A DNA stretch of 64,000 bases from Branchiostoma floridae. Lineage: Eukaryota > Chordata > Leptocardii > Amphioxiformes > Branchiostomatidae. Position 1 is the first letter of the stretch, and each line of letters begins with the position of its first letter. Location: contig NC_049982.1 in assembly GCF_000003815.2 (NCBI RefSeq), forward strand, positions 18,192,246 through 18,256,245. The letters run 5' to 3'. Under the pieces are notes generated by a model, which had not been told where the DNA came from, did not search any database, and saw nothing but the letters and a program-made list of their open reading frames with translations. Positions 16,001-50,261 of the stretch are shown one piece after another. The translations under genes and the position numbers were made by a program.

Positions 16001-19000
16001 CCCAAGGGCAGGCGCATCCTGGTGGTGGTGCCGGAGATCTACCTGCCTGCTAAGGATGACTGCGGGGACGTGCTGGTCATGAGGAAAGGAGGTGAGGGAT
16101 GGGAGGGGAGCATTTGGGGCTGTACATTAGACTGAAATCCATTTGATTACTGCACTGAAGGGTACATCAACAGCTGGATTTCAGGCTAATGCTAGTTCTT
16201 ATGATATCTACATGGGAACATGTTGGTTACAATATGTTGGTTACATCATAGAAGGAGTTTAAGATGAATGCTGCACTACTTTGACATGTCTCTTGTGCCA
16301 TAATGTCCCCATCTTCCAACACTACTGACATAGCGCAATATGCTACACAGTCAGTATGCACTTTGCCTAGACATAATGTTTGATATAAGTTGTGAATGGC
16401 GAGACATTGTTAACATGATTATTATTTCGTTACCTCTTGGCCATAACTGAGCCTTTCCTCCTCTTCCAGCATCACCATATTCTGTGACAACCTATGAGAC
16501 CTGTCAGACATACGACAGGCCGATTGCCTTCACTTCTCGGTCACGAAAGCTGTGGATTCAGTTCAAGTCCAACGGGGCCAACAGCCAGAAAGGCTTTCAA
16601 GTGCCATACGTTACCTATGACGGTAAGCTAGTTAGTCAGAACAGTATCTAGCTGTAACTGGAATTGTAGAAAGTTAAGCACAAGATACAATAGAAGCTGC
16701 TTAATTGCATGGCCTATTTGCCAGTGAATTTTGTGCAATTATCCGGCTGGTGCAGGGATGCGAAGTTATCTAGCTGGACCACACCGGTTTGGGATTCCGT
16801 GCAGTTAACAGAAGTGTGCGTTAAACCGTTGTGCAATTAAGTGGCTTCTACAACTGTACTGTGTTAAAATGGATGATTATATAATGTAAGAAGTACATGA
16901 CTTTTTGTGTTGTTGCATGTATAGTATTACATTTCAATACTTTTCTACACTTTCATCAGAAAATTATCAAGACCTCATTGAGGACATTGTGCGAGATGGT
17001 AGGCTGTATGCATCGGACCATCACCAGGAGATACTCAAAGTGGGTACTTTTACTTATTAGATATTTCATGATATTTTGTTGTCCTCTGGTCTTCCACTCC
17101 TATCCTTTTTTCATTGTAAGTTCATAAATTCTGAAAAGATATTGGTCATCACTGAATATTAAACACCAATGGGTTACCAGAAGTGAAGAAAAGAATGAGA
17201 AGTAATGGAACATCACATGGAGTATCTGTTTTCTAACAGTTTGGTGTCAACTATTCTTGTCAAATTCTTTGACTTCTTGCAGAGTTTTAGATTCGACACT
17301 TAGATATTGAAATAATGCAAAAGGAAAAAAAATTACTATACCTACAATGTAGTACATTTGGATGAAGGGATGCTTTATTTTTATATATCATAGCCTATCA
17401 TGGCTAAATCTTTCTACAGTATAGAGTGACTTGATTTAAGACATAGGCTTCTTCGTGTACATGTAGTTTTGTTAACAGTAACACTGTCTTTGCAATGGCA
17501 ATGTTAGAGGTATACAACATAACATCTGACCCAACTTGTGAATAGTTAAGTAATACAGCATTCTCTATAGCACTTGTTTTGTTTCAAAGTTAAGCTCCTT
17601 CTTTACAGCAGAAAGTATCGAACTTCATACTATGCTTGATATTTCAGGTGTATTGTCTAATGTCACTGGTAGAACTCTTATAAAGTTATGAATGAATAGG
17701 AGCATTTGGTACTTTTAGTACTCAGAAAGATCCCCACTGCCCTTTATTAAGCCCATGTTATGTAGTATACCTCTAACAGACGTTTGCTGTGGACTAACTG
17801 TAGTGTGTCTGCCGATGCAGGATAAGAAACTGGTGCAGGCCTTGTTTGAAGTGATAGCGCAGCCCCGGAATTACTTCAAGTACAGCTCAGCAGAGTCTAC
17901 GGCCATGTTCCCACGCTCTTTTATAAAGTTGCTGCGATCTAAAGTCACCAGATTCTTCAGACCATTTTAAAACGTGGGTTATACAGTTAGTCTTCCTTTT
18001 GTTTTTTGCAGTCTCATTTCATTACCTTCCATTTCATAGCGCTGTCACTTAAACTAAATTGTAATGCCATTGTTTGCTTTAAACAGCTGTCTTGCCAAAA
18101 GTAGCATCCCCTTATTTTATACATGCACCCTGTAAGTCACCCATTTCATTAAAAGTATATTGTCCATTTCATAATAATTCCATCATGTCCTTTAAAGGAA
18201 CCAGCCGTGAGTCATCATTGTGAACCATATCTTTTATACCCAGTTTTTAAAGTTTCAGAATTTCATTAGAAAAAAAAAGAAAGTCAAACAAGACTGATAT
18301 CAGCTACTTTCAGGTAGAAAAGTGACTATTTTTGGTTTGACACTTTGGCTGGTCCCTCCGTTTGTCCTCACAACCATCCACCAAGTTCTCACCAGTTTCC
18401 TGATCATGCATGTGTAATGTATTGTATTGTATCTTATGCAATGTATTGTATTGTATCTCTAGGAGTTTGTTATCCTAACACATGCAGCACATTGTCTCTA
18501 TGTTTAACTCAGTCTTCTTTTATTTGGTAAAGTTCACTTGACAAGGTCAAAGCTGATATTGAGATCTGTATAGGGCTGTAGTGCAATCCAACATCACACC
18601 AACCTCTCCTACAAGCTATCCATAACATTAATGATAATCCCAGTCAAATGTCAGGGATTTGCTAACTATATATTTCTTGTTCTGATATGGTTTTGTAGAG
18701 GTTTTGTAGTGTTGACAAAGTTATACATGACTGAGACCTTGAAACGATTCTGCTTTCAGCACCAAGGACAGACTTCAGTGCAAAAAAGACACATCTTTTA
18801 AGATGTTAAAAGCTTCTGTTTCTTTCCAAAGTATCTTTCGAAAATGGAGAAAAATTATTGTCATTCTAAAATAAGTCATTCTTAAAGCAACAAGCTTTCC
18901 TAAAACCATAGTTGCTTTTTTTTTCGATTGAACGAATGTGTATACAGTGTATTATGATTGACCATGTGGATAGAACATGGCTATGATGTCTATTTGCACA

Positions 19001-26533: not shown

Positions 26534-27150
26534 TCCCAGGAACAGAACACAATACACCCATAACCAAGCATACCTGTCCTTGGTGCTGAACACCATACAC
26601 CCATAACTGAGCATACCTGTCATTGGTGCTGAACACCATGCACCCATAACCAAGCACACTTGTCCTTGGTGCTGAACACCATACACCCATAACTGAGCAT
26701 ACCTGTCCTTGGTGCTGAACACCATCCACCCATAACTGAGCATACCTGTCCTTGGTGCTGAACACCATACACCCATAACTGAGCATACCTGTCCTTGGTG
26801 CTGAACACCATGCACCCATAACCAAGCACACTTGTCCTTGGTGCTGAACACCATACACCCATAACTGAGCATACCTGTCCTTGGTGCTGAACACCATCCA
26901 CCCATAACTGAGCATACCTGTCCTTGGTGCTGAACACCATACACCCATAACTGAGCATACCTGTCCTTGGTGCTGAACACCATGCACCCATAACCAAGCA
27001 CACTTGTCCTTGGTGCTGAACACCATACACCCATAACTGAGCATACCTGTCCTTGGTGCTGAACACCATGCACCCATAACCAAGCACACTTGTCCTTGGT
27101 GCTGAACACCATACATCCATAACTGAGCATACCTGTCCTTGGTGCTAAAT
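26534..27150. repeat. 43-bp minisatellite with higher-order pattern
   Basis: About 14 tandem copies of a 43-bp unit (core GTCCTTGGTGCTGAACACCA followed by a variable base, then CACCCATAAC). Two kinds of unit end are seen, CTGAGCATAC and CCAAGCACACT. The variable base after ACCAT runs a,g,a,c,a,g,a,c,a,g,a,g,a, giving an 86-bp dimer and a 172-bp four-unit higher-order repeat. It lies between the convergent 3' ends of APIP copy 1 and PDHX. Confidence 0.95.
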
Positions 27151-28373: not shown

Positions 28374-31300
28374 TCATAACAATGCTGCTTTGAAAGGATT
28401 CTCCAAGTTTTCTTTAAAGTTCTCCAGAAAGGTGGAGGCCAGGGCATCATCCACTACTCTGGAGTCAGAACAGAGTGTCACAGTCATGACAGTTTTTGTT
28501 GTGTGTCCATCCTCCGTGGGCTCCACCAGGACACGTGAGCCGCCGATCGCCATGATACAGGACTGTGGGGGGTTGATGATGGCACTGAACTGGCTGATGC
28601 CAAACATCCCCAGGTTGGAAACACTGCAGAGACAAGGGAACACAGTGAGCCATGTTCTGATGCATTACATGTATTGGCAAAAGAATGCAATGTGTGAACA
28701 GCAATGTGTGAAGTGCCAGAAAGAGCTACATGTAAGTTGCTAAGCTATCTTTTCAAACCAATAAAACTACAAACACAATTATGTCTGCAAAATTGAATGA
28801 AGCCACAGCGATTATCTGGATTTAACAGTGTACCAGTTCTTCCCATCAACTTTAAAGATAACTCCTAAAGACAGTCAGTAGATCAGACCTGAATGTGCCT
28901 CCTTGGTACTCCTGAGGCAGGAGTTTACCTATCCGTGCTCTCCCTGCCAGCTCCTGAAAAATAGGACACTCTTTCAGCTGATACTTCAGAACACCCACAT
29001 CACTCTTCTACTTCTATCTCAACATCTGTTCCTCAAAACAAAATTCTGCACAAACATATGGAAAGCTCTTAACCTTACTGAGGCTTCATGAGTTAAGAGT
29101 ATTGAGTACAGAAGAAGAACTTTATTGCGTGACATTTGTAACAGGTACAATGTATGGCAATCTATGTATACATGGAAGTTGAACTATACAAGAGCAGTAT
29201 TCATTACAAGCCTGTATTGCACCATGCTTGTTTATTACCTTGACAGTTTCTGAGATGTTCTGTAGTCCCCTGGATGGTACATCTGTTACTATGGGAGTAA
29301 TCAAGCCTTTGTCTGTTGCCACGGCAACTGATATGTCCACATTGGAGAGCAGCTGCACCGCCTCCCCCATCCACTGAGCGTTCACCTCAGGTACCGTCTG
29401 TGTAGGCAGAAATCAGGGAAGATTTTAAGCTATGTTTTACATGTATGTCTGTCTCTCTGGCTTGTAAAACTGGTGAAATCATAATACCAAGACAGGGAAA
29501 ATATATCCCTGTAACAAAGTTGTGTAAGAGAGGCATAAGACTGCAACCAATATAACTTACCTTGAGTGCCTGCCCAACGGCCTTGATGATAAAATCATTC
29601 ACAGAAACCTTTACACCAGAACCTTGGAACAGGAGGGGAAGTTGGGGTTGAACAACACTTGTATTAATGTACATGCAAAAAGGAGCATACATGTGATACG
29701 CTTTGATGCAAATCTATATCAAGTTAGAGGAACCCAAAAGCTTGGTCAAATCAATGCCCAAGACTGTCATACTAGCTTAAGCCATGTTAAGTCTATTGGA
29801 TTACTTTGTTTTACCTTAACTCTCTAAAGCACAGGACCAAGTCTATAATGGCTTTCTTTCTCAACCATAAACTGCATAGCAATAGTGTTGTAATGTTGTG
29901 CAATTTTATCTCATGCAAAAGATCTGACATCTGTTGTAAAAGGTCTGTCCTTTCATACTACTGCCAAGGAGTGAACAGAATGATTTACATGTCAGCTGAA
30001 TCAACTCATCACATCCACCACTTCCAAAATTACCTTGTAGCTGTTTTCTGAGTCTCAGGACTGAGCCCATCTCACAGTCTATACTGCTGTAGGCATGTGG
30101 CACTGTAGTCTGGAATGTACAGGAGAACAGATAAGATACAGAAGAACAACCTACAAATGTCAAACTATTGTCTGATTAAGTTTTCAATGTTAACTTGTTT
30201 AATAGGTGGGCATACAGCTGATCAGAGTTATTAAGAGCAACTTTGCACAATTATTACATTTGAATACAGCCGGCAGATACATTGAAACAAGTGAACATGA
30301 CACATATTGTGGTTTAAGAGAAAAGGAATACAAGTCCTACCTTTGATTGTGTGAGTCTTTTTGCTATTACCCTCCTCATGCTTGTGTGTGGGATGTCAAC
30401 AAACTCATCCTGAAAGACATATTTTTGACAATCATGTCTGAAACTGTCTGAAAACCTATGGAAGAGCTACATATGCTTTGAGTTTTTCTGGTATGCATTA
30501 TGCATTTTGCTGTTAACTTTTTTTTACCGGTATATCTAGTTTTTCTTCATCACACAACTTGCCCATTTTCACTTGACACCCCCCTCTAGTCCACCCCATG
30601 TATCAGTTTGTGCTTACCTCCTCTGCTGCAGCAGGGGGTACTGCAGGGTGTGTAACTGGGGGAGGGGGTGGGGGAGGAGCAGCCAAAGGGGTGGGGGCAG
30701 AGGGCATGGTAGGAGCCACCACCTCTTGTCTCCTAGAACTGGGGTCACCAGCAAGGAACTTCAACACATCCCTGGAGAACAGTATGTTAAGTCATAAATT
30801 CTCTTCACTTATAAATAACTTTTAAAGATGACAACATGACTTACTAGTACTACTTTTTAAAATAGTTAGATTACAAGTAATAACCCAGGACCATTGATAT
30901 ATTATTAGGCTTAATTAATGCTGCGAGTCAAGGTTGTCAGATTCCCTGTTCATGCCTTCAATTATTTTCATAGATAGTAGATCTATCAACATGTTACACA
31001 CCTTTTCTTCGTTTCATTAATCTATATATTTCTATCAGATAGAACACAGAGAAGTAGACTCAGCCTTGACTTGTTATTCAAAAGAATCGTTCACCCACCC
31101 TTTGAGTAGTCTTCCATGTGGACCAGTGGGTACAATAGCTGCAGCATCCAGACCGTTGGAATCTACCAAGTACCTTACTGCAGGGGACAGGTCAACATGT
31201 CTGGAAAAACAAACAAACATGTGCATGTCAGTGCACTGTTGTACTGGAGACGGAAACAACTGACTCATGAATGAGTCTGAAGTTGCAAAGACAACACACC

Positions 31301-33100
31301 ATGGCTGTAAAAAATTCCTACCACAGACAGTCCTACTTGTCATATGAAGATACAAATGTCTAGATATGTACCATATCACACCAATTATAAAAGTTCTTGG
31401 CCCTTAGGCCTTACCCTTTTCCCCCTGCCACATGTCTCATGGATGAAAACTCTGATGAGGAGGTGTCCTCTGTGGCTGTAGGTACAGGGGCATCAGCAGG
31501 GGTGTCCACTGCAGCAGACGGAGTGCCTGTCTCTGTTGGGATATCGACCTGAGTGTGGTCTTCTCCTTCAGCCACCATCAGGGCTATCAATTCATTGATA
31601 CGAACATTCTTTGTGTTCCCTGGGACCTGTAAGGGGCATCAGAATGTTAACATAACATAAATGACAAACTGTCTGTGCCTATACTACTAGTATATTTGTA
31701 CCTCATGGTATAAAGTACATTTGGAAAAAAGACAAGTTTTTCTCTGTAATACAGAGACATTGCTCCAATTCCTAGAACTAGTCATCCAAGATCCCTGCTC
31801 TTGAAATAAATTCCTTCATCAAAAGTTGTTGAGATATGAGTATTTAGCGCAGAATTTACAGCATAATATATAAAAAATATTACACTTTTCAACACTCTTA
31901 ATAATGACTTCATTCACTTTGTTTGGCCAAATTTAAACTTACCAAAATTTTGGCCATGACTCCATCATCATCAGCATCCATTGTAAGTGTTGCTTTGTCT
32001 GTCTCAATCTCACACAGTGGGTCACCAGCTGCAATTGGGTCTCCTGTAAAGAATAAACATCAAGAACCCAAAACAAGGTCGATAAGTATGTACAGCATTA
32101 GACTCTTGTCAGATTTCAGAGTGAAGCAATTTCCATTTAACACCTAAAACAAGATCATATCAGGATTTTACAACAGATAACTGTGTCTGAAAATGAAACA
32201 AACTTAAGAGATGGTAAATTTTAGACTTCCCTCAGCCAATAAATGGGTACAAGCTGTGTGCTTCATTTCATGAATTAGTGATATTATTTCTGAGCCGCAG
32301 AAATGTGCAAAAGTACAACTACATTATGATGTGATAAATGATGACAAACCTTCCTTTTTCAGCCATGAGATGATGGTACCTTCCTCCATAGTGGGGGACA
32401 GGGCTGGCATGTGCAGCTTTATTGGAGCTACACCTGATCAGAGATGTGCAGAGATTAGCTGACATGTTGGTTACAAGTCATACTTGTGTACATTACTCCT
32501 AAACTGAAGAGAGTAGACATCTAATGCACCGCATTACTGCTCACGCACCACACACCAATCAGTAGTACCGTTGCCTTTTCTTTAATCAAAGTCGTAGCAT
32601 ACTGTAATGTCACACATTCAAAATGATTCTACTGAACACAAAAAGTTTTTTTTTTTTTCATAGAAATAATTTAATCAGGTTCGTAGAATATATCATATGA
32701 CTGATGAGAATTCTTGCACACAACCAGGATGTACTTTATTCGATGAAAATCATTCCTTTATTTGGAACATATGATCATTAGAATCAAAGGTCTGAATCCT
32801 TGACAACAAAGGAATCAGGGTTAATGTTTTTTTTATATATATATTGATGGTTAACTTCTCGGATGATGCAAGAAATTGATCATGGTGGGACAGATGTGAA
32901 AACTTGCCCCTCCCCCTCCATCGAAAAATAACCTTTTTACGTGCATCAACTGACTCTAAATATTGAAACTACCCACCGAATACTTCTGGTGTCCTGTAAA
33001 AGTTCCTGTACCATTCTGTGCAGCCTGCCGGGCGCCCTAAGGTGTGAGAAGGTAGAAGTTTGGTCCGACCTAACGTCCTCCACAGGACAGAGGACGCCAT
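28374..33100 (-). CDS. PDHX: Pyruvate dehydrogenase complex component X (E3-binding protein)
   Basis: Structural subunit of the mitochondrial pyruvate dehydrogenase complex that anchors E3 (dihydrolipoamide dehydrogenase) to the E2 core. Twelve coding exons, read right to left: 32977-33100, 32350-32433, 31943-32043, 31415-31626, 31099-31200, 30618-30771, 30341-30409, 30034-30109, 29561-29622, 29239-29397, 28889-28953, 28374-28623; 1458 bases in frame, 485 residues (human is about 501). Order: basic Ser/Arg-rich mitochondrial targeting start; one lipoyl domain (about 45-110) with lipoyl-Lys86 in EIETDKA; a linker; E3-binding domain (about 174-215, ending [16 protein letters not shown]); a proline-rich linker; inner-core domain from about 260. 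The C-terminus has SDSRVVDD where true E2 has the His-containing DHR..DG acyltransferase motif, which separates PDHX from DLAT. Start is the first ATG, 450 bp from the APIP copy 2 start. Confidence 0.96.
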
Positions 33101-37116: not shown

Positions 37117-40100
37117 ATGGCGGAGGCAGATGCTAGTAAGTTGCCTGCTAGTTGGTTACAACCTTGCAATAGCCAGAGGACATTGCATAGGGATATACAT
37201 CATAACTTAAACACTTCAAGTGGTAGGGATTATGTTTATGTTGCTCGTAGGCCAGACCGACACGTCTGTTGACTGATTGTCTGACCTTTAACATAGGAAT
37301 TGTCACGTCGGATCACGTTGTCAGAAGACATGTCATTTCAGGGCTGGAGGTCCCGAGGATTTTTCACTGTTTGGTGTGTCGATGGTCCACAAATGTTGTC
37401 TGTGTCAATGTACTGATGTTTTGTCAGGTCTGGAGTGTATTGTGAAGTTGGGAGGGAGTGCCGTCACTGACAAGAGCACACTTGAAACACCTCGGCTGGA
37501 CGCCATCAGGGCTGCTGCAGATATCATCTCACAAGTTAGGGGGCGCTGCATTGTCGTCCATGGAGCTGGGTAAGATTCATTCTGGAAATTTAGTTACGTC
37601 TTCCACCGTAACCGATTTTTTTTATTAGATAACTCATGAATTTTATCCTTTTCTTCTTGAGTTATCTAGGCCACTATCGAATTGACAATCCTTCCAAGAC
37701 TATGCCATGGGTTGTTTGTAGTACTTTTAAATTTTACTATATATTAAACCTGCTACCCTAACTGAAGTAACGTTACAAAAGTGTCGCATCATTAGCTTCA
37801 CAACACATATTGTGGCCATGGAATATGATTGCCTTCGCCAAGAAGGTTAACGCTATACGTCATGTATGTTGCCGTTTGTGTGTATGTCTCTTGGTCATCA
37901 AAATAACTCAAGAATGGCTGGATGGATAGGGTGTGACAAAAACTGAAATTAATTAGATGTTGGGTCCCCGAAGGCTTTCAAGGGTAATACAGCAGAATTT
38001 TCTGTTTTGATATCTACGCGTGTTCTATACGTGCTATGGTTATGAATTTTAGGCGGTAGATAGTTCTTGTGCTCGGAAAGAAGTGGACCCTCTAGCAGCT
38101 GATTCGGAACTGCAGGTACGTTTCAAGTGCAAGCTTGAAGCCATGTGAATCATGACGGAATTAATGAATTTTCACGATTTTTGAACTGTACATTAAAAAA
38201 ACTTGCTAAATGACAGGACCTTCATTCTCATTACGCACGTAACTTGGTTCTAGAGGGGTGTAGTGCATTAGTGGTAAATGACGTCATACATATTCAGCTT
38301 GTTCGCATTCACCATGATCCCAGCTCTGCTCATACCTTTGCTAATTGTTTCCGTCTAGTAAACTGTCGTCGCCAATGAAACGGCCATCGCCTTCCTACGA
38401 GTATCAGCATACTCCGTACAAACCGTGGCTTACCAATGTTACCGTGGCGTTTCCTGGCGTTTAGGGCTTGACTTGGCTTTTTGACTATGGACCGAACCGG
38501 AGGTTGTGCGTGTTCGCATTTTTCGATAGAATATTCACCATTTATTAATTGCGATCTTGTCGTGCTTTTGTGATTGAAATATTGCTTTGTATACGTTTTT
38601 GATTTGTTATGAAATGCTCGGATGTGGTATCAGGGAAATTGGGACGATAGTTTACGTGTCGGACACGCGCCACGCTTACTCAGTGACAGATCGTACTCTT
38701 GCGATCACGTGAACACTTGCGTTGGCGGGAGCAACTACCGTGGAATGACTTTTCCAGCGCCCCCATTTCCTGCAAAGGACATCAAAGGAAATATCTAATA
38801 GCTTTTTTGTCCCACTTAGGAACTGTACAATAAATGACACGCCATTTGTGCTTGGCCATTTCCGCTGTTTTATTAGTATGTGTATTCCTATATTGCAGTC
38901 TGTCACATAACTACGATATACACCGCACAGTTGAACAATGTCAATGGCGCAACCCATCAAAAAGCGATACAGGGCGTGCGGCTCTCAATTGCCACACAAA
39001 TAGTCCGGATATATTGTTTACACGTTAATGGAACAACTACGACATCTAGTCCGCAACAAAGGTCATGACTATTGTCTCCTTCAAAAAGAGAGGAAGCAGT
39101 TTTCTTCAACATAATTATCAATTCTGATTCTAACATGCCTTTTCTCTTCTTCTTCGCATGCACAAGATACTCTTTATTTCCCTGTACTAGCGGTTAGATT
39201 AAATGTTGGCGTATCGTTGATTTGCACCTTTTGCCCATGACCATGTGTAAGGTAATCACTTGCGGGATATAACATACACTCAGTCGTGAAACAGCCGGTA
39301 CAGATGAGTGACCAGGTCAAGCGGACTATCCGACCCCCTTTTTACCCACGCCATCAGTTCAACGATCCCCCATCTTGGCATGGAGATGTCAGTGAACCCG
39401 CTGTAAATGTTGTATCTTATTAGCTTTGGAAGCGGTCACACATGTCGCACGATCGTCGTACGATCACAAACTGATGAGGGGATTCTTTAATAGGATAATC
39501 ATGCATGTGTCGCACAAAATTCAGCAGTCATGTTTCGAGCAAAGCTGTCCGATACGGTTGGTTCTGTCACCGTCTGCTTGAAAGCTTCTACGACACCAAA
39601 ATCGCACGACGACCTATGACGATGTGACCGTGCCGTTAGTTGTTACAGCAGGATGTTAGATTTGCCACAACAACTCATGGTATACCCACGATGAATGGGA
39701 AATTTCGTAGCTTGTTAAGGTATCCTTAACTTCGGAATGCGCAAACCCGATGATAGGTAGCTTAGTCCAGGCTTGGTGACTCATGGCACAGTACTAAAGA
39801 TAAGCCGATTCTTTTGCTTTCTGGCCAAAAATGGAATAATGATGTTCAATCCATCCTTTTTGTTGTGTGGCACCCCGGTACTTACCGAGCAACATGATTA
39901 TGACGAAGTAGCTATTTTTGCAGTATCCATTTACTTTTGTAGGTCCAGATCGTTTCCCTAGCGCTTTTTTCTTGAAAGCCAATGGTCGGTCTTTTCAGAG
40001 TTTACTAGCTAGCCTGGTAACATTGTAGTTACAGATGTACTTTGCCGGACTTTACCGGATGTACTTTACCGGACCACCACAGGATCGATGTTCTAGGATG

Positions 40101-43100
40101 GTACCAGGCTATGAGATAGATACAGTACATCTGTAAGTGTACTGTTTTGGAAACATGGCCTGCAATAACCTCTGTCTAGAAACTGAGCCCCCTTGAGGTC
40201 ATTCAAGGCATGTGCCCCCGGCTACGCAGAAATATCTTCATTAAATTGGAATTTTTCGTTCTAAATCGGGTTGTCCTCCCTTTAAATATGGTCCATCGGT
40301 GGACTATTCCATAACATACCAGACGAATTCCTCTCGAGGACTATTTTCAGGCTTCGACCACGTCTCTTCGATCCTGTATCCTACGTTTGAAACAGTCCTG
40401 ATGTTATCTGTACTTTCGTCTGTATCTCTTGGCACGCGGTGCTGAACATCACAATGTTCCTCCACTGTGTGATGTTCGAGTATGTCCCTGCTTTCCGTTC
40501 CTATTGGCCCTACACATTATGGTACCTCCAGTTATACATGAAGGCATGCTTCAACATAAAGCGGTCATTCTTGCTTCAAGGCATCACCTCGATACATAAA
40601 GAAACGTGATGAAGAGTTTTAAAACATGTAGAAATGCCTGGTAGTGTAAAAGCTTTTCTGATGGTAATGATCTAAGTTCGGTGTTATGCACCAAACCCTA
40701 AGCGTACCAAAGCATGTCTTTGCTGAGCTAAATTGTCTAAATTGATGAGACCTTTGGCTGCTTTTCAATATTTGCTGCGATTTGGCAGAGCAGGTTACGT
40801 TTCAGCGCTTAACTTTATTGTTCTCTGTATTCTTTTTTTTTTTATCTTCGTTTTTCTATGTTCTCAATCTTTTAGAGAAACTCGCGATCGGTACCATGAC
40901 GACGTACGGTCGGTACCATGACAACGGCAGTAATCAAGTCGATGACGTCGGATTTTCGACGTGATTTCTGTGCCGGTTTTGGACTTCTGACTTTTGTTAT
41001 TCTTACAAAAATGACAGGACGTTCCATAAACCGTAAATGAGGACTTACTGCCTGCTCAAACCAAAAATGTCAGCGTATGAAGTTTTTACGGACACTTTGT
41101 TGCATTAGCAGGCGCCAAAGATCCTCAAAATGGCACAGGAACTGGCAATGTTGTATCAACTTAAAACATCGCGTAAAAATTTGTCCCAATAAATGTTACA
41201 TCGGGACAAAAACAGTGGTTTAGTTTGTAAGCCAGTGTTCTAGTCATGAATACTTGATTCTTTTGATGTTCAGGACGTAAGGCCACATCTTAGCGCGGCA
41301 TTGACAGCACGACTTCACTCTGATTGGCCGGATGAAAAACCGTCTACCATTGGTCAGCACCGCGTCCTTGACAACCGACAGCTGTGCGCACGTGCTGAGG
41401 TCACCAGAACCGCTGGATTGATGTGGATTCCATCTGAAAATGATCAAAACGAAAGTTGTAAGTTTCATGCACAATTCACAATGCCTTCCCTCTGAACTGA
41501 CTGAAGAGTTGAAAAAATATATGTAGCTCGGATCGCTTTTCATTTCACCATCAAAGATCATTCTATGGATGGCCATGGGTCTCAAGACTCAAGACAAGTC
41601 CTGGCTCAAGTCAAGACGCGGCGACGCATGTTCGCGAAAATGAATAAATGAACTTAATTGCTCGACACTAGTTGTACTATGTATGATAACAATTACAAAG
41701 AAATCAAAACAACAATACGCCTTTAAGTAAAGATAGAGTAATATTAACAGAATGACACGGTGTACATTCTTTCTGTTATAGAACCGTGTCTCTTTTATGA
41801 AGCGCTACAATGAAGCCCTATGTAGTCGGAGAATGACATATGTGAAATGTTTATTAGGACATGCATTTAATCATGTCATTATGGTTAAATGCTACAGCTA
41901 GCTGGCAGTTAAGTCAGTAAGTTTCTCTGATCATCCGCTCACCTGCACGGCAGCCCCTCGCTGAGACACGTGACCTCGTGGATCTTCTGCTCGTAGATCT
42001 TGCCCATGAACACCACACACCTGACGATCTCCAGCGGCTGGCCCGTGTGCGGGTCCCGCTCCTCCACAAACCGCGAGGCCGGCCGCTGGACGGACGGGCA
42101 CCCAGACGAGCCCTCCCCGAACCCCAGCCCGAAGGAGCTGCGCCGCGTCTTGAAGGGCTTCAGGGACCGTTTCGGTTTGAAGTACGGCCGGAAGCGACGC
42201 AGCAGTCTCCCCTTAAAATCCACGGCGCAGTCTTCCACGTCGTCAGTGGTGAACTGCTTGAATCCGGTAGAGGTGGAGGCGAGGGCTAATGTCAGTAGGG
42301 CAGACATCACCACCTGGGAGAGAAACGGAGGCATCGTCAGTTCACGTGACGCAATGAAGGAGCGGTTGTTCTTGTGCATAGAAAAAAATCTCTACACGAG
42401 AAACTTCTCTACAGCTGATCTTAAAGGGGTGAACTTTTCTCACAACGTGGGCGGTTGAATCACAGACGGTGGCTACATAGTATAAGTCAAGGTCGATTTA
42501 TTGTTTTCCTCTTCCCTCACAAGGGACACTTTAATCTAGAAGACCTAAACATGAGTTATATGACAAGGGCGTATTGTGGTCCCCCGGGAAGAAATATGCT
42601 CCTTTCAAGGCTTGAGAGTTTCCAGTTAACGAGAGGGCACAGATATGGTAGCATAAGTCAAATTACCGGAGCAGCCCGCAATATTGTCAAAGGCTCCAGT
42701 CAAATGGACAAAATTGGTGTTTTACCCCCTGGGAAGACTGCTGCGTAGCTAGTGGTTCTCTTAGCTGAGAAGAACATGTTTTGGTTGGGATGGATTAGCT
42801 CTATAATATATTGATTTTTAAAAGTCTTTGTCGTGAAGAGAAAGGAGAGATTAGGCATTATTCCACAACTTCTCGGACCGCCCACGTGGAAATATTCTGT
42901 TTTATTTGCTGCGTATTTCTATACAGGTCGAGCGTTCATTGAAACACGTCGGAGATTATGATGGAAAAGGCATCGCCGAACCTATGCAATAACGCCCCCA
43001 CATATCATAACTCCTTCTGCTGGACTTCAACGCCTACCCAAAACTGGTTAGGGGATGTTGCAAATACAAGGATTAAATGAAGGCGATTACGTTACCCATT

Positions 43101-46100
43101 GTAAAACATGGCTTCCTGATGTTCTGAAGAGACAAGTGTGTATCATTGGTCAAGGATTAAGTGCACCGATATTGTAAACGCCCAGAGGCACTTTCAGCGT
43201 TTGACAAATCGCCCACACTGCCCGGGAGGTATAATTTGACAAGTGTCGCTATGAACGCTGATTTCTTTTTACCACGTAGGCCCATCATACAAACGCCAAA
43301 CAGATATGTCTTTACAAGCTTGTAAGGAACATGACTTGATGATAACTTCATGAACAACTGAGCCTGGAGTTTAGTGTGGAGGAGATATTTATGACTCCTG
43401 CTAATACTTGTTCGTGCTCTTCGGTTGTCCATCAGGAGCATAGTTGGAATGGAATGTACTTTAATGCATAATGCAACTTGCACAGTTGTTACATGTTACA
43501 ACTGAAGTAATTTGATTCTTGTCACCAAGCGACTTCATACATCTGCAATGAAAGTTTTTATCAACATGTTTGCAGGACTGGAAAAAAGAACTTATATGTG
43601 CAGGGACACTGATGTATGTTAGCCTGCTTGTATTCCAATACAGCGCCGGGTACACCCTGTAAACCACTGGGATACAAAACATGTTTTGAGTCGCACACTG
43701 TGTCCTTTATGTTTCAACTTCACTAAAATGTGCCCCATCATTCCCGGGTCGGTGCCTCGTCCAGGGCGTCCATTGGCGCATGGACCCCACAAGGGGAGGG
43801 GACCGCTTTCATCTTAGCGATCAGTAATAAGTTTGTCCTGATGAGGTGAAAGCGCGTATAATGAATGCAGGAACGTGGCTTTCACCAAGTAAAAGAAAAT
43901 CTGTGAAGGGTAGACTTTGTAAAAATTTCATGGGAAGTCCCAAAGTGTCACGTATCCGAAGAAATTACAGTGCCGTTTAAGATAAATCATCCGAGTCGTC
44001 GCTGTGGACCTTTCTGATGTAGATCGTCCTTGAAACAAAACTAGGAAACACCTTGTAGTGAATGACTTGTCACCAAAGACTCTACAACAACCCAACATTC
44101 CCCTCAAAGCGGATGTCTCTAGGAATTTGCGCCAACTTTGTGAATTTGTGCCAATATCCCCTTGCGGTCACACTGCGGCGCGTTTGCGAATTATTCTCCA
44201 AGCAGAGGTTACGATCTACGAGATAGAAGTGGCCAAGATAATGTTACGACTGCCTCGGTATCCTCTCTGTGAAGGAGGGCAGCCATAAGAAATGCGACAT
44301 TTTGCGAATTTTTGATTAAAGAAAAGGATTGCACTTTCGAGAAATTGGGTCACGTTGCGAGTGTCTGTCACAATTTGCGCAGTCCAGTGAAATACTTTAT
44401 TTTCAACACGTGCGATGACTCCTTCTCAATGAATGATAGAGACGAGGCATCTCTACAATGTGATCACTCTTATCAGCTACTACATCATCCCCACCGGCGC
44501 CCTGGCCTTGTTTGGTTTCTAGCTTCGTGTATTTTTCCATTGACAAAACGTGCGTGGTCTATAGGGACCGTTCCATACCAGGGGCATTAACCACCGTGCT
44601 CCAGCCTAATATAGATATCATGTACCACCTCTCCTTAGTTAAGACTGTTAAATGTGGGAGGGAGTGCCACAATATCTCACAATACCGGTACCAGAGACGC
44701 AAGTCTTAGATATTGTGATAGTAGTTAATAGTGATATAAATTTCTTATTTATTTATTTTAACAGACCCACAATTAATAAGTTTACCATTAATTGCTGTTG
44801 ACTGGTTCGTCCACTAACGTAAAAACAGTATTTGCTATTGTTTAAGCATACACATTTAATGAATTTGGTATTTTCTTATGTATATGAGGCGCGTAATATG
44901 AACTCATTAAAACAGCTGGAAGGCATTGTGGGGTTTTGAATGTTGCGTATACATGCCGCTTTGATTATAGCTTGAATCGTCTTTTGCAAAGGCGATTTTC
45001 CATTTGTTCCAACGGCTTTTGTACTGGATAGGTATAAACTATTTCTATTACGTATGTGGCGAAGTGATCTTGTTGCGTAATAATAATCCGTTGTTTATGA
45101 ACAGCATGTTTTCGTAGTTGGGTTACCAATACCATTTGGACCATGTTTCCAATGTTTACCATCATTACCAATGATTCAAGCCTCTGTTTTCAATTGATTC
45201 CCCTCACTCTTCATAGACGAGTTTTGCTTCCCTACTCCACCAATCCACTTGTTTCTTATGTGTAGGAAGGTCTACAGTTGAGTAGCATGTGGAGATGTAG
45301 TATATAGTTCAAGGTAACGCTTTGTCCGCACCATCTTGTGTGCTGCACCCACAAATACTTTATGGCCAAAGAAAATAAAGTATCGGGTGATGCATGCACA
45401 TGTACACATATTATTTTTAGAAATGGCTTACTTTAGATTATAACATCATTGGTTTGCGATTTTGAAACTGCCATTGCCCATATCGTGTGCAGCAAGCAAT
45501 AACATGTTAGGCAACAGGAGCACTTGGGAACCAATTTTACACCTTGAGTATTGGATGACGACTTACAGCTAAATTAGGAGCTAGAACTAGGGGCTGGCAA
45601 AACAACGGGCTAGTTAGATACTATAAAATTGACATATGGTCAAAGTTGTTCACTTACCGTTTTCAGTCCGTAGATTTCCATTTTTCTCGTTCTCAGATAC
45701 TACGGTGAGCACTGAAATTCGTCTTACTATTCCAAAACGTCCAACACACGGCACGAGGCGCTGTTTCAGTCTGTGGACTTCTGCCTCAATCTAAAGCACG
45801 AGTTGGAGCGGCAGGGCAGGGCAAGTGCCGTCTGCAGCTTCCCTAGCAACGCTGTTCAGTGGACTGGCAACTGAGGACCCTCGCTGCCAGGTTATCCGCT
45901 ATAACTAGCTTCCGCAACAGGAAGTGACGTTGCCTGGGGATGTTCCCTCCTTTTCAAACAACCAATCAGGCGCGCCTATTCTGATTCAACCTTCATGTTC
46001 ATGACTTCAGGGGTACTGAGGGGTACTGTCAGTCACCACCTGTCACGTGATCAGCAGACGGCTGCACCTGTTGTGTTGACTCACTTGTAACGTAAAAAGG

Positions 46101-49100
46101 TACTATTTCCAGTCCGAAGATTTGTCTGACGTTTATCAAAATTATACGACTATTTAGTCATCAATGAGTGATAGAATGAAGGAATGTCCTCTGCGTAATT
46201 AAGCGCATGTCATCAGATGATTTCGATTCCTTGTGGAAAACAGGGCTTGTCTCCAGGCAGATGTTGAGCATGAAGGTCGTAACGTTTATTTCGGCTGTTT
46301 TTTTTTCTTCTTTCAAACACGAGCGGGACTGTTCTAAATTGTTAACTCTACCCTCCCCACATCTGCTTGGAGATTAGGAGGGCGCCATGGTCCCATAGTT
46401 GGGATTCTGGCGGCGTGCTGCCCCGCGGAGGTACACAGCTGACATGACCTGAGACGTGTCAACACTCATGTACCAGGCATCTCTGTCTACACGCACGTAC
46501 ACAGTCCAACATCTTACAGTGTAGTCATCAACCCGGGGAATAGAGAGATGAGTCTTGGATAGGGGTGGGTACCGGTACAACGTACCGGTACAAACCCGTT
46601 TTTTCTTGTTAGACCGGTCTAGAAAAAACGGACCTAAAAATCAGTAGACTGGATGTTGGACCTATTAGAAAATGAACAGATTATACCGGCAGACGTTCTC
46701 GTGTTTTGGGGCTTTACATGTCTTACATGTCCAAGAAAATAACAGGAGTGAAGTAGAGGAGAGTTTGTAGTCATTTTGACCGAGCTTCTGCGCTACAGTC
46801 AAACTTGGTGTAGAACATCAGAAGTAGTAATAAGTGTTGTTTACATGAAGGTAGGGTTTTAAATACCAGTGGGAGTCGGATACTCCACCAAACAGAATCC
46901 TTTGTAACGAAATTGACTATTATTGTTTTGAGTATTGCCCATTCAGGAGTTTTCACAGATAATTAGGTCCAGGTTCAGATCCGTACTTTTAGGCATGGGT
47001 CATTATCTTAGAAGCCATTAACGTTACGCTTTAAAAGAACGATGACAAGATTAAGAGATTTATCAGAAAAAGGTTCCATCAAACTTTCCAAACTTTTTGT
47101 ATTTTGGTCAGCCTTTTTCTTTCGTGGACTTGTTATTTCAGAGTGACTTGTAGGATAGCCTTAAGAGATTCGTGTTTTACGTTTACAAAAGTTAGTCTTA
47201 TATACATTATGTACCCTCCCCTCTTGTTACCTGGGTTCTGTAATACTGGCTCCCGTTAAAAGGCGAAAGTCAATGTCTGAGTGCCTTCCCAACAGCTGCC
47301 AATTCCTGCAGGACTTCTGACAGGGAAGATCGTCTGACCTTTAGCAGCTTTCATGCTTCATGTCTGTGTAAACAGACTTCCGTCCGACTCACGTCCTGGC
47401 GCATGAGGCAACTGTTTGGCATTCCTCTATGTTTTTTTCTTGTCGTATGACCTTTTATCATGTCCCGAGAGTTTTTCTTCTTCCGGAGAAAGTGGCAACA
47501 CATCTAGGGCAGTGTGAATGAATAATCTCTCGCTCACCTTGTCGTTACAACTATTTGTAGTCACAGCCAAATTGCACAAGGACGACGTTCGCCAACAAGC
47601 GCAAGTTTCCCACCTTCGAATTCACTTTACAACCAGCCTATAAGGTTGTATCCGTGACTCAAGTGCGAAGTCTTTGATTTCGGTGTGTCATGTTGAAGTG
47701 TGTCCGTAGATGCGTATACACTGTCAGAGGAATGGTAGAATGAGTGGGAAGATACTGTAACCGGCAGGGTCAGACCACCAGGAGTGCAGGACCTGTAGAC
47801 GTCAGAGGTGGTAGAACGTGTCGTTAAAAGACAACCCCGGTCACTGGGGCAATAAAAGAGGCTACTGATTGACGTGGATTTATTGGTTTTGTCCGTATCT
47901 GTATTTTCACAGTTATGTATTTTCATATGCAAGTTATGTTGAACGGTTAAGTGACATGAAGAGATTAACGGATACATGTAATGTTAATCAAAACCAACCT
48001 ACATAATCAATGAAGTACGATTGATCAAGACATACGAAAAACGCTTCAAACTCTTGTCATGATGACCTCTTGCTCCTGTGGTACTAGTGCGTCATCAAAT
48101 GCCTTTTGTATGCATATCGGAAAGGGGGAAGCAACCTGGTGAATTTGAAGCTAGTGAAGTGGCTATATATGTACTCTCCAAACAGAAGTCGGTGGGGAAA
48201 ATAGTGTCAGTTTTCATGCGTTTTTTCTTACCGGTCCCACCTTTGGTGAAAGACAATGGGGCATATGAAAAGGTCACAATCCTAGCCAGCAACCTTTGCT
48301 TGTAGAATGTGTGTCAGGTATAACACCAGTTATAAAGTTATAAAGGCTCAGCTTAGAATGCCATCTGACTCTACATTTCTACATCTCTACTTTTGGCAGG
48401 TCTTTCGGACATTTCCAGGCAAGGGAACACGGCGTGGTGTGGGGGTACCGTGACAAGGAGACGGACACAGAGGTTCAGACTGTGAAACTAGGCTTCTGCA
48501 GAACACGACAGTCTGTTACTAAGGTACGGTTTAGATTGACACTTTCAGCCGTTATGGTACTGACTGCCTCCCGGCACGTCCACCTGTTTCTCTGTTGTGC
48601 TGTCTCCTATTGTACTGTGCCTCGTTATTTCCTCAAGTTTGTCATTCTTTCTTTCATTGTAAATAACGATTGTAACAAAGAATTGCATTTTTTAAACATT
48701 TTTTACTGTTACAATGTGTGTGCACTAGGCTATCAAACGTCTTACCATGCATAATGTGGGACTTATAATTCCAGCTTTTACACATCATAACAGAAGAGTT
48801 TGTCCGACTTGGCATCCCCGCAGTTGGCGTGTCAGTGAGTATTTTTCGCCGCCGCATTTTTTAGAGTTCCCTAATATTCAAATTGTAAAAAAGTATTGGC
48901 CACGGATTTATCAAACATGCAGCTTTAACGTTCGGAATATCGTCTCCCCCTTTTCTGACCTTTATCAAAATTTTCTGTTATTTTTCCGACCAGCCCTTGT
49001 CATCATGGGTTACGGATGACGCGTCTGTAGTGAAGGCAGACACTGACAACATCCGGGATATGCTCCTGGAGGGGTTCCTTCCCGTCATGCACGGCGATGC

Positions 49101-50261
49101 TGTCCTAGATCGGAAACGAGGCTGCACCATCCTAAGTGGTGACACCATCATCAAGGTGGGAAGAAACTTCAACATTGAATTTCATCGGTGTCTTACAGGC
49201 GGGATAGGCAATGCTACAGTGCCGAATGCCAAAGAAAAAAAGAGATACTAGCCATCCTGGGGAACTTTATCGTACTCTCCAAGCAGAGGTTTGGCTCCGG
49301 CTGTTTTTGACGTTTTGTTAGACGTTTTTATCGGGCATTAACGTTATGTCTGCTGATGTCTACGGGCCGCGAACAAAACGGTACAAAATAGAAAGCCCGA
49401 TAAAAATGACTTTAAAACTTTTAAAAATAGCCAGAGCCTAACCTCTGCTTGGAGAGAAACTTTATCGCTATCAGGGCTTACCATTCGGCAGACTTCACTA
49501 CTATTCTTCACAAAGTCATCACCGCATGGACCGAGACTCCGCAGATGTCGGGAAAAACTGTACATGTGTCTAGATTGGGCCTAAGTCCAGTTAATTCTTG
49601 AAAGTGTCCTTTGATTATGCATTTTACGACCCATAACTTATCGGTCCGTTACAGCACCTGTGTAGTGTGTTCCGCCCCCCGCGGGTCGTGTTTCTAACCG
49701 ATGTGCCCGGGATCTATGACAGACCTCCCGAACAACCAGGTAACGTCACGTCTAATCTATAGTGATAGTATTCAGTTACCTACCTGTTGCAAATTCAGAT
49801 TTTATCTGTGCAATTTTTACCCCCTGCTGACAAATTCGTTAACGTTAATTGTCTTATTAAGTATTTGAAGGTTTATATTTCTTAGTAGAAAACAAAAAGG
49901 AAGCATACAAACTCATATTGAAAGGATTGCAGATTCTATTTTATTTTTATTCACTTGCTCAAACTCATTTCTCCGATTTGCAGGTGCTCAACTTATACCT
50001 GAAATTCAAGTTGATCGAGATAGAAAACTACATGTCTCCATAGCAACGTCTTCACAAGCACATGACGTCACTGGGGGAATAGCTTTAAAACTCAAGTCTG
50101 CCATTGACATTGTGACGGAGAGCAACGGCCACACATGCGTCATGGTCTGTGGTATCCAATCACAGGCTGCGGTACGAGCATGCGTGGAAGGACAACTCCC
50201 ACAAGGCACTGGGACAATTGTTCAGCTGAACATAAGCAAACATCCGGATGAAGTTACGTAG
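37117..50261 (+). CDS. IPK: Isopentenyl phosphate kinase
   Basis: Amino-acid-kinase-fold enzyme that phosphorylates isopentenyl phosphate to isopentenyl diphosphate with ATP, the last step of the alternative mevalonate route first found in archaea and later reported in plants and some animals. Exons: 37117-37135, 37428-37569, 48400-48523, 48775-48834, 48994-49155, 49655-49739, 49984-50261; 870 bases, 289 residues, all phases fit. Motifs: KLGGSAVTDK (13-22, nucleotide-binding start), HGAGSFGH (51-58) with the IPK-diagnostic catalytic His58, PVMHGDAVLD, TILSGD, and VVFLTDVPGIYD. The presence of His after GSFG separates IPK from fosfomycin, glutamate and aspartate kinases. The start is a short exon, MAEADA, with a good context (AAGGTGATGG) whose phase joins LECIVKL exactly. 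No targeting signal is seen. Intron 2 is 10.8 kb and holds an antisense gene. Confidence 0.93.
37835..38130 (+). repeat. Dispersed repeat in IPK intron 2 (family of 8690-9798)
   Basis: Begins with CCTTCGCCAAGAAGGTTA, then AATAACTCAAGAATGG.TGGATGG, a GGGTCCCC block, a TGCTATGGTTATGAATTTTA block, a GGTAGATAG block and GGAACTGCAGGTACG. The same order of blocks occurs at about 8760-9320 and 53340-53640. Non-coding. Confidence 0.75.
40010..40136. mobile_element. MITE-like inverted-repeat element
   Basis: TAGCCTGGTAACAT at the left faces GATGGTACCAGGCTA (40097-40111), and TTACAGATGTAC (40029-40040) faces GTACATCTGTAA (40125-40136). The middle has tandem TACTTTRCCGGA units. Located in IPK intron 2; no coding potential. 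Confidence 0.6.
41244..45681 (-). CDS. Secreted prepro cystine-knot ligand, Spaetzle/neurotrophin-like
   Basis: Exons, right to left: 45658-45681, 41943-42313, 41244-41433; 585 bases, 194 residues, every junction in phase. Residues 1-25 form a signal peptide (hydrophobic VVMSALLTLALAS). A basic pro-region ends in KTRR (63-66), a furin-type site, giving a mature part of about 128 residues. Its cysteines are 80, 107, 124, 131, 147, 174, 175 and 177. The order C-P-S ... E-V-T-C ... L-P-C ... T-C-A-Q ... S-C-C-Q-C matches the Spaetzle-type cystine knot, whose neurotrophin fold also ends in a paired cysteine strand after an F-I-R-like strand. Cys107 is extra. Such ligands act as disulfide-linked dimers on Toll or Trk-type receptors. 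Exact subfamily (Spaetzle, Trunk/PTTH or neurotrophin) is inference. It is nested antisense in IPK intron 2. Confidence 0.75.
45682..46090 (-). promoter_or_regulatory. Probable promoter and 5' region of the cystine-knot ligand gene
   Basis: Upstream (on the minus strand) of the first coding exon lies relatively GC-rich sequence with a GGCAGGGCAGGGCAAG run (45811-45826) and a duplicated GGGGTACTGA. No TATA box was identified; the role is inferred from position only. Confidence 0.35.
46560..46680. repeat. GGTACCGGTAC palindrome-bearing repeat
   Basis: Contains GGTACCGGTAC, CGTACCGGTAC and AGACCGGTCTAG in about 60 bp, followed by AAAAAACGG. Such clustered ACCGGT palindromes look like the end of a transposon-derived repeat, but no second end was found. 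Confidence 0.4.
49274..49458. mobile_element. MITE in IPK intron 5
   Basis: Terminal inverted repeats CTCTCCAAGCAGAGGTT.GGCTC bound about 180 bp; the pairing continues inwards through ATCGGGC / GCCCGAT. The outer flanks carry AACTTTATCG on both sides (49263-49272 and 49459-49468), which looks like a target-site duplication of about 10 bp. No coding capacity. Single-ended matches to the inverted repeat also occur near 44194 and 46365. Confidence 0.8.

What the first reader, a model, noticed from the sequence alone, without database searches (positions are those of the whole stretch)
41244..45681. Spaetzle/neurotrophin-type ligand gene nested antisense in an IPK intron
A three-exon gene encodes signal peptide, basic pro-region, furin-type KTRR and an eight-cysteine mature domain ending in SCCQC. 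The cysteine order fits the Spaetzle-type knot better than classical neurotrophins, with one additional cysteine (107). Spaetzle-like Toll ligands are best known from protostomes, so a deuterostome member bears on how lancelet Toll receptors are activated and on the common origin of Spaetzle and neurotrophins.
Basis: partly seen in the sequence, partly recalled or inferred. Interest (0 to 1): 0.8.

Follow-up and report, generated by a model that had tools for sequence, protein, structure and literature searches.

The report
Lancelet neurotrophin/Spaetzle-type ligand gene
A lancelet gene sitting inside another gene's intron appears to encode a small secreted signalling protein whose cysteine-knot core mixes features of insect Toll ligands (Spaetzle) and of the neurotrophins known from vertebrates.

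Summary
A three-exon, GT-AG minus-strand gene model (exons 45681-45658, 42313-41943, 41433-41244) encodes 194 aa: signal-like start, short basic pro-region, KTRR, eight-cysteine mature domain. It lies antisense in a 10.8 kb intron of an isopentenyl phosphate kinase gene. The genome looks like lancelet: 513 Mb, mir-2060 matches, and an NT gene with the Tyr reported for amphioxus NT. Pfam gives one family, Spaetzle (E 3e-5 to 8e-5, just under cut-off); 0 of 10 cysteine-fixed shuffles match anything. So it is very likely a neurotrophin/Spaetzle superfamily member. 'Spaetzle-type' is only partly right: it has CCxC, a short C2-C3 loop and no Trp130, but lacks Pro13, aromatic 133 and Pro136, and its strongest pairwise match is a lancelet neurotrophin-like gene on C13. 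The tree puts it between the two families without firm support. [quoted passage not shown] Likely function: secreted disulfide-linked dimeric ligand; receptor (Toll-type or Trk/p75) open. No transcript or structure was available.

The parts
45658..45681 (-). exon 1 (coding part): MEIYGLKT, start of the signal peptide
   Evidence: ATG with A at -3 and G at +4, donor GTAAGT, in-frame stop 21 bases upstream; not supported by any transcript
42314..45657 (-). intron 1, 3344 bp, phase 0
   Evidence: GT-AG, 42% G+C
41943..42313 (-). exon 2: rest of signal peptide, basic pro-region, KTRR (residues 63-66), mature domain to just after Cys III
   Evidence: open frame, acceptor TCTCTCCCAG, donor GTGAGC, 63% G+C
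41434..41942 (-). intron 2, 509 bp, phase 2, splits the knot domain just after Cys III
   Evidence: GT-AG, 38% G+C
41244..41433 (-). exon 3: rest of the cystine-knot domain with SCCQC, basic tail, stop
   Evidence: open frame to TGA; AATAAA at 40819
37430..50261 (+). host gene, isopentenyl phosphate kinase: exons about 37430-37569, 48400-48523, 48775-48834, 48994-49155, 49655-49739, 49984-50261; 5' end of the gene not fixed
37570..48399 (+). host intron, 10,830 bp, that holds the ligand gene on the opposite strand
   Evidence: measured it one base shifted

Best explanation
It is a protein-coding lancelet gene for a secreted ligand of the neurotrophin/Spaetzle cystine-knot superfamily. Shown from sequence: signal-like N-terminus, short basic pro-region (about 40 aa) ending in KTRR, then a domain with the six knot cysteines (80, 124, 131, 147, 175, 177), the superfamily's conserved Gln seven residues before the second knot cysteine (Gln117), and an extra cysteine (174) next to the fifth knot cysteine. 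Inferred: furin-type cleavage after KTRR frees the knot domain; two knots dimerise and Cys174 locks them by an inter-chain disulfide as in Spaetzle (PMC2772990 section 16 ascribes covalent dimers to this extra cysteine); Cys107 gives a second inter-chain bond or pairs with Cys37 of the pro-region. The dimer then bridges two receptor ectodomains. In type it is neither a clean Spaetzle nor a canonical neurotrophin but an intermediate. Of published forms it recalls the non-canonical deuterostome ones described for sea urchin (Sp-NT2) and acorn worm (NTb), which have the extra cysteine and, in Sp-NT2, split exons, though it lacks the Pro136 of Sp-NT2 and the Asn18 described for both. Estimates: secreted superfamily ligand 0.85; covalent dimer 0.7; signals through a Toll-type LRR receptor 0.4, through Trk/p75 0.35, other 0.25.
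For: Only Pfam match is PF16077 (E 7.8e-5 whole protein, 3.2e-5 residues 66-194); 0 of 10 cysteine-fixed shuffles match Pfam. An unanchored alignment of 7 superfamily members has six invariant columns: five knot cysteines and the Gln. Smith-Waterman against 1000 cysteine-fixed shuffles: C13 lancelet NT-like z 7.2 (0 of 1000 as high), NGF 3.5, Aedes Spaetzle 3.1, C2 NT-like 2.3, Drosophila Spaetzle 1.5, canonical lancelet NT 1.3, PTTH -0.3. Extra Cys in Sp-NT2 and NTb, split exons in Sp-NT2: PMC2772990 section 16.
Against: Pfam score (23.7-24.9 bits) is below the curated cut-off of 27. No transcript, no orthologue in a second lancelet species and no structure model could be had. Drosophila Spaetzle and the canonical lancelet NT are not significant once cysteines are held (86 and 105 of 1000 shuffles reach them). 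The whole protein finds no knot protein in the PDB by sequence at E up to 10; its best hit is a LIM domain at E 0.096.
Confidence: 0.75

Rival explanations
1. (A narrower reading inside the best explanation.) True Spaetzle orthologue: retained from a Spaetzle gene present before the protostome-deuterostome split, and ligand of the protostome-type (mcc) TLRs of lancelets.
For: Only Spaetzle is found by Pfam; CCxC, no Trp130, and a C2-C3 loop of 6 as in Drosophila Spaetzle (8 in Aedes), against 9 in 6 of 6 neurotrophins used; best tree joins it to the two Spaetzles at 77/92; 3 mccTLRs reported in B. floridae (PMC6224433, passages).
Against: 0 of 3 Spaetzle residues tested (Pro13, aromatic 133, Pro136) are present; Ile169 is the neurotrophin state at site 133; C1-C2 length 43 fits the neurotrophins used (40-46) and not Spaetzle (36 in both); support is below the tool's mark for a shown branch, with a long-branch warning; only two Spaetzle sequences were available.
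Confidence: 0.3
2. (A narrower reading inside the best explanation.) Lancelet-specific neurotrophin paralogue, derived from the C13/C2 type, that gained the cysteine next to knot Cys V and an intron, and acts on Trk or p75.
For: C13 is by far the strongest pairwise relative (z 7.2; 24 of 84 aligned residues identical), sharing QK.HEVTC and VKSxCxC; Ile at site 133; a clade with C13 and C2, or with C13 alone, is not rejected (AU p 0.224 and 0.215).
Against: PF00243 (NGF) does not list it at E up to 10, although it lists C19, C13 and, below the cut-off, C2; no Trp130; C2-C3 loop 6 instead of 9; C13 and C2 have their knots in one exon; the best tree does not join it to them.
Confidence: 0.35
3. 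Member of the Trunk/PTTH/noggin branch; B. floridae is reported to have a trunk gene (PMC6660194, passages).
For: Short secreted knot protein; a short RFVEER/RFIETR likeness to PTTH.
Against: PTTH z -0.3 (613 of 1000 cysteine-fixed shuffles at least as high); noggin fragment (recalled letters) z 1.6, not significant and aligned out of register; no Pfam noggin match. No trunk sequence was available.
Confidence: 0.04
4. Not a working gene: open frames joined by chance splice sites, or a pseudogene.
For: No transcript evidence; exon 1 codes for only 8 residues; exon 2 also has open frames on the other strand.
Against: Knot pattern continues exactly across the exon 2/3 joint; consensus-like splice sites (by eye); G+C step at the borders of exons 2 and 3; no internal stop.
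Confidence: 0.08

Closest known systems
Non-canonical deuterostome neurotrophins: Sp-NT2 (sea urchin) and acorn worm NTb (PMC2772990)
   Same: Extra cysteine adjacent to the fifth knot cysteine; for Sp-NT2 a precursor split over several exons (as described in section 16).
   Different: Pro136 (Sp-NT2) is Lys172 here; Asn18 (both) is Asp in the alignment and Pro in that; sequences not available for a direct comparison. Those authors supposed that this ancestral type could have been lost before cephalochordates.
Spaetzle (Drosophila C-106, PDB 3e07; Aedes protein of PDB 7b1c)
   Same: Cysteine order with CCxC end, conserved Gln, C2-C3 loop of 6 (Drosophila), no Trp130, Pfam PF16077.
   Different: No Pro13, no aromatic 133, no Pro136, longer C1-C2 segment, additional cysteine 107, much shorter pro-region (Spaetzle's long pro-domain is recalled).
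Lancelet neurotrophin-like genes on C13 (L005) and C2 (L006)
   Same: Gln plus HEVTC/REVKC, VKSxCxC (C13) or VKAxCxC (C2); C13 is the best pairwise match.
   Different: Match NGF somewhat better than Spaetzle, have Trp130, loop of 9, no extra Cys at 138, knot in one exon.
Canonical neurotrophins: lancelet NT on C19 (L004), NGF, BDNF, NT3
   Same: Six knot cysteines, Gln, Ile133.
   Different: This protein has no Pfam NGF match, no Trp130 (Tyr in C19), a loop of 6, CCxC and a split knot.

Membership tests
neurotrophin/Spaetzle superfamily | six knot cysteines in order | tested here: met
   all six aligned with anchors that I set; five of six found invariant without anchoring, the third misaligned
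neurotrophin/Spaetzle superfamily | conserved Gln (Gln44 of PMC2772990) seven residues before knot Cys II | tested here: met
   Gln117; present in 9 of 9 sequences; its role from PMC2772990 section 15
neurotrophin/Spaetzle superfamily | knot fold with dimer interface | not testable with these tools
Spaetzle | Pfam PF16077 at its curated cut-off | tested here: inconclusive
   23.7 and 24.9 bits against 27; E 7.8e-5 and 3.2e-5
Spaetzle | Pro13 (nine residues after knot Cys I in both Spaetzles used) | tested here: not met
   Arg at that distance; alignment there is loose
Spaetzle | aromatic residue at 133 | tested here: not met
   Ile169. Aedes Spaetzle shows Val there in the same ungapped register, so the rule is not absolute
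Spaetzle | Pro136 before the CC motif | tested here: not met
   Lys172
Spaetzle | no Trp130 | tested here: met
   Ile166
Spaetzle | extra cysteine before knot Cys V (CCxC) | tested here: met
   Cys174; also described for Sp-NT2 and NTb
Spaetzle | binds and activates a Toll receptor after proteolysis | not testable with these tools
   needs binding or reporter assays
neurotrophin | Pfam PF00243 match | tested here: not met
   not listed at E up to 10 (HMMER's filters drop most matches above about 0.1), while C19 and C13 pass its cut-off and C2 falls below it
neurotrophin | Trp130 (Tyr in amphioxus NT) | tested here: not met
   Ile166
neurotrophin | Ile or Val at 133 | tested here: met
   Ile169
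neurotrophin | Asp at site 18 | tested here: inconclusive
   aligned as Asp, one column off
neurotrophin | C2-C3 spacing of 9 (my own observation on six sequences, not a published rule) | tested here: not met
   6 here; 9 in 6 of 6 neurotrophins used
Sp-NT2/NTb type | extra cysteine next to knot Cys V and, in Sp-NT2, split exons | tested here: met
   Cys174; intron 2; definition from PMC2772990 section 16
Sp-NT2/NTb type | Pro136 (Sp-NT2) | tested here: not met
   Lys172
Sp-NT2/NTb type | Asn at site 18 | tested here: not met
   Asp or Pro in that column
Trunk/PTTH | sequence likeness to PTTH above shuffles | tested here: not met
   z -0.3

The most novel reading that the evidence does not exclude
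The gene is a surviving chordate descendant of the common ancestor of Spaetzle and neurotrophins, still making a Spaetzle-like covalent dimer, and is the endogenous protein ligand of the lancelet's few protostome-type (mcc) Toll receptors, so that a Spaetzle-Toll style axis persisted into chordates beside NT-Trk.
Probability: 0.2. Interest if true: 0.85.

Novelty: new variant of a known kind. Interest (0 to 1): 0.55.

Why it matters
PMC2772990, a 2009 paper, states that Spaetzle genes had not been found in deuterostomes (section 15) and suggests that ancestral-type, extra-cysteine neurotrophin genes could have been lost before cephalochordates diverged (section 16). A lancelet gene with mixed Spaetzle and neurotrophin marks speaks against that loss and may help to root both families: it has a short end branch on the join between them, with weak support. 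It also names a concrete candidate protein ligand for lancelet mccTLRs or AmphiTrk that can be expressed and tested.

Tried and rejected
Trunk/PTTH and noggin: no significant signal. PDB search with the whole protein: no knot protein at E up to 10; two hits, a LIM domain (E 0.096) and a histocompatibility chain (E 1.6), both taken as chance. Genome-wide PF16077 search at the default threshold found nothing, not even this gene, probably because the knot is split over exons; at E up to 10 it gave the C13 gene (E 0.074) and an exon on C11 (E 6.0) that looks unrelated. Other split family members may therefore be missed, and the genome tool scores only its best candidates. A weak protein match on C16 (L003, E 0.72, query residues 110-146, no intron, one stop) was not seen by the DNA search and is treated as chance or a relic. 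Automatic alignments misplaced cysteines (Cys III, more), so the tree used cysteine and Gln anchors set by me; PTTH and noggin were left out of it (9 of the 11 reference and query sequences handled). The tree carries the tool's warning of long branches meeting. A Pfam scan of other stretches around the host intron failed, so further genes there were not looked for by profile. Literature: in ten searches no listed title or abstract start reports this gene, and I opened nine papers, by passages or sections only; two searches listed 20 of 27 and 25 of 42 papers. Words printed with an accent (as Spaetzle often is) may escape that search, and subscription papers and sequence databases were not searched, so the gene may well be annotated.
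Full report
What was checked. I rebuilt the proposed gene from the window. On the minus strand, exons 45681-45658, 42313-41943 and 41433-41244 join through GT-AG introns into one frame of 194 codons plus stop; of the exon 2/3 joints listed, this is the only one with both GT and AG (whole frame confirmed). Introns are phase 0 and phase 2. Exons 2 and 3 stand out in base composition (63% and 51% G+C against 42% and 38% in introns 1 and 2). A stop lies in frame 21 bases before the exon-1 ATG. No transcript data were available, so exon 1, which carries only eight codons, remains a prediction; the exon-2 frame also offers an ATG before its splice site.

Setting. The window is G000:C4:18192246-18256245 of a 513.4 Mb, 431-contig genome. 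The host gene on the plus strand is isopentenyl phosphate kinase: six exons that I read give a protein matching NF040647 at E 8.2e-54, 182.6 bits against a cut-off of 120. The ligand gene lies within its intron 37570-48399.

What the protein is. Pfam gives one family, Spaetzle PF16077, E 7.8e-5 for the whole protein and 3.2e-5 for residues 66-194, in both cases somewhat below the curated cut-off. Ten shuffles of the mature domain that kept every cysteine in place matched no Pfam family (0 of 10), so the match is not only a cysteine pattern. NCBIfam has no match at E up to 1, and no PDB knot protein is found by sequence at E up to 10, the best hit being a LIM domain at E 0.096. In an unanchored alignment with two Spaetzles, three lancelet neurotrophin-like proteins and NGF the six invariant columns are five knot cysteines and the Gln seven places before Cys II, the residue that PMC2772990 names as shared by both families.

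Spaetzle or neurotrophin. The evidence is mixed. For Spaetzle: profile match only to Spaetzle; Cys174 beside knot Cys V giving SCCQC; no Trp130; C2-C3 loop of 6 (Drosophila 6, Aedes 8, against 9 in 6 of 6 neurotrophins used); best tree with the two Spaetzles at 77/92, which is weak. For neurotrophin: the strongest pairwise relative by far is the lancelet C13 gene (score 62, 0 of 1000 cysteine-fixed shuffles as high), which itself matches NGF better (29 bits) than Spaetzle (20.4 bits); Ile at site 133; C1-C2 length 43 (neurotrophins used 40-46, Spaetzles 36). Missing: Pro13, aromatic 133 and Pro136 of Spaetzle; Trp130 and the NGF profile match of neurotrophins. Aedes Spaetzle itself shows Val at the aligned place of site 133, so that criterion is not absolute. 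A clade with C13 and C2 is not rejected (AU p 0.224). On the unrooted tree the protein sits, with an end branch of 0.17, on the long join between the two families, where an intermediate would sit; with nine sequences, long branches and the tool's warning about them this is a hint only.

Relatives in the genome. The NGF family search lists C19 (E 2.4e-20), C13 (5.6e-5) and, below the cut-off, C2 (0.03), each with the knot in one open frame. By Pfam C19 matches NGF and not Spaetzle; C13 and C2 match both; the window gene matches Spaetzle only. Protein and DNA searches with the window gene list no second copy apart from a doubtful 37-residue stretch on C16; these searches score only their best candidates and read exon by exon.

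Closest published kind. PMC2772990 (sections 15 and 16 read; [quoted passage not shown] The window gene has both traits, in a lancelet; it does not have the Pro136 of Sp-NT2, nor the Asn18 described for Sp-NT2, NTa and NTb. The same paper says Spaetzle had not been found in deuterostomes. PMC7535936 (passages) reports that no additional neurotrophins were detected in bilaterians; PMC2586362, PMC4812194, PMC6660194, PMC9071555 and PMC6591376 were seen as passages only. B. floridae has 3 mccTLRs by PMC6224433 (passages) and the amphioxus genome 12 P-type TLRs by the older count quoted in PMC6043800 (passages), so Toll-type receptors are at hand. A Trk receptor of amphioxus is known (reference, passages), though PMC4812194 speaks of a secondary loss affecting it.

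How it probably works. Secretion, cleavage after KTRR, dimerisation with a Cys174-Cys174 bond, and receptor bridging are inferred from the anatomy and from the family. The pro-region is short and very basic, which may suit storage or binding to acidic matrix; that is speculation. Cys107 is unpaired in the family pattern and could make a second inter-chain bond or pair with Cys37 in the precursor. Which receptor it uses cannot be told from sequence; I put Toll-type slightly ahead of Trk/p75.

Verdict. A real, well-read observation; superfamily very likely correct; 'Spaetzle-type' half right; Toll ligand untested. Interest is moderate: it bears on where Spaetzle and neurotrophins parted and offers a testable ligand, but forms of a similar kind are described in other deuterostomes and the gene may already be annotated.

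Noticed in passing
26545-27146 -: Three Rfam mir-2060 matches fall inside a 43-bp/172-bp tandem array of 14 copies of 43 bp; the annotated microRNA family may be a minisatellite hairpin, or a microRNA born from one.
   Followed up: partly
L004, L005, L006 (G000 C19, C13, C2): The genome has three neurotrophin-like knots, each in one open frame; C13 and C2 share a pro-region motif (NSLSCxLERDYPD) and match both NGF and Spaetzle profiles. A paper passage seen derives vertebrate neurotrophins from a single ancestral chordate gene.
   Followed up: partly
L003:1486-1608: A stretch on C16 resembles the exon 2/3 joint of the window gene without its intron and ends in a stop (E 0.72; not found by DNA search): chance or a retrocopy relic.
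   Followed up: partly
3627-16132 +: Open frames with EGF, ephrin-receptor-like and CUB domains, as in a SCUBE-type secreted protein (the SCUBE name is recalled).
   Followed up: no
29125-31403 -: Open frames of a 2-oxoacid dehydrogenase acyltransferase (catalytic and E3-binding domains).
   Followed up: no
37430-50261 +: An animal isopentenyl phosphate kinase, matching the equivalog model NF040647 (IPPK_Arch) well above its cut-off (182.6 against 120 bits).
   Followed up: partly
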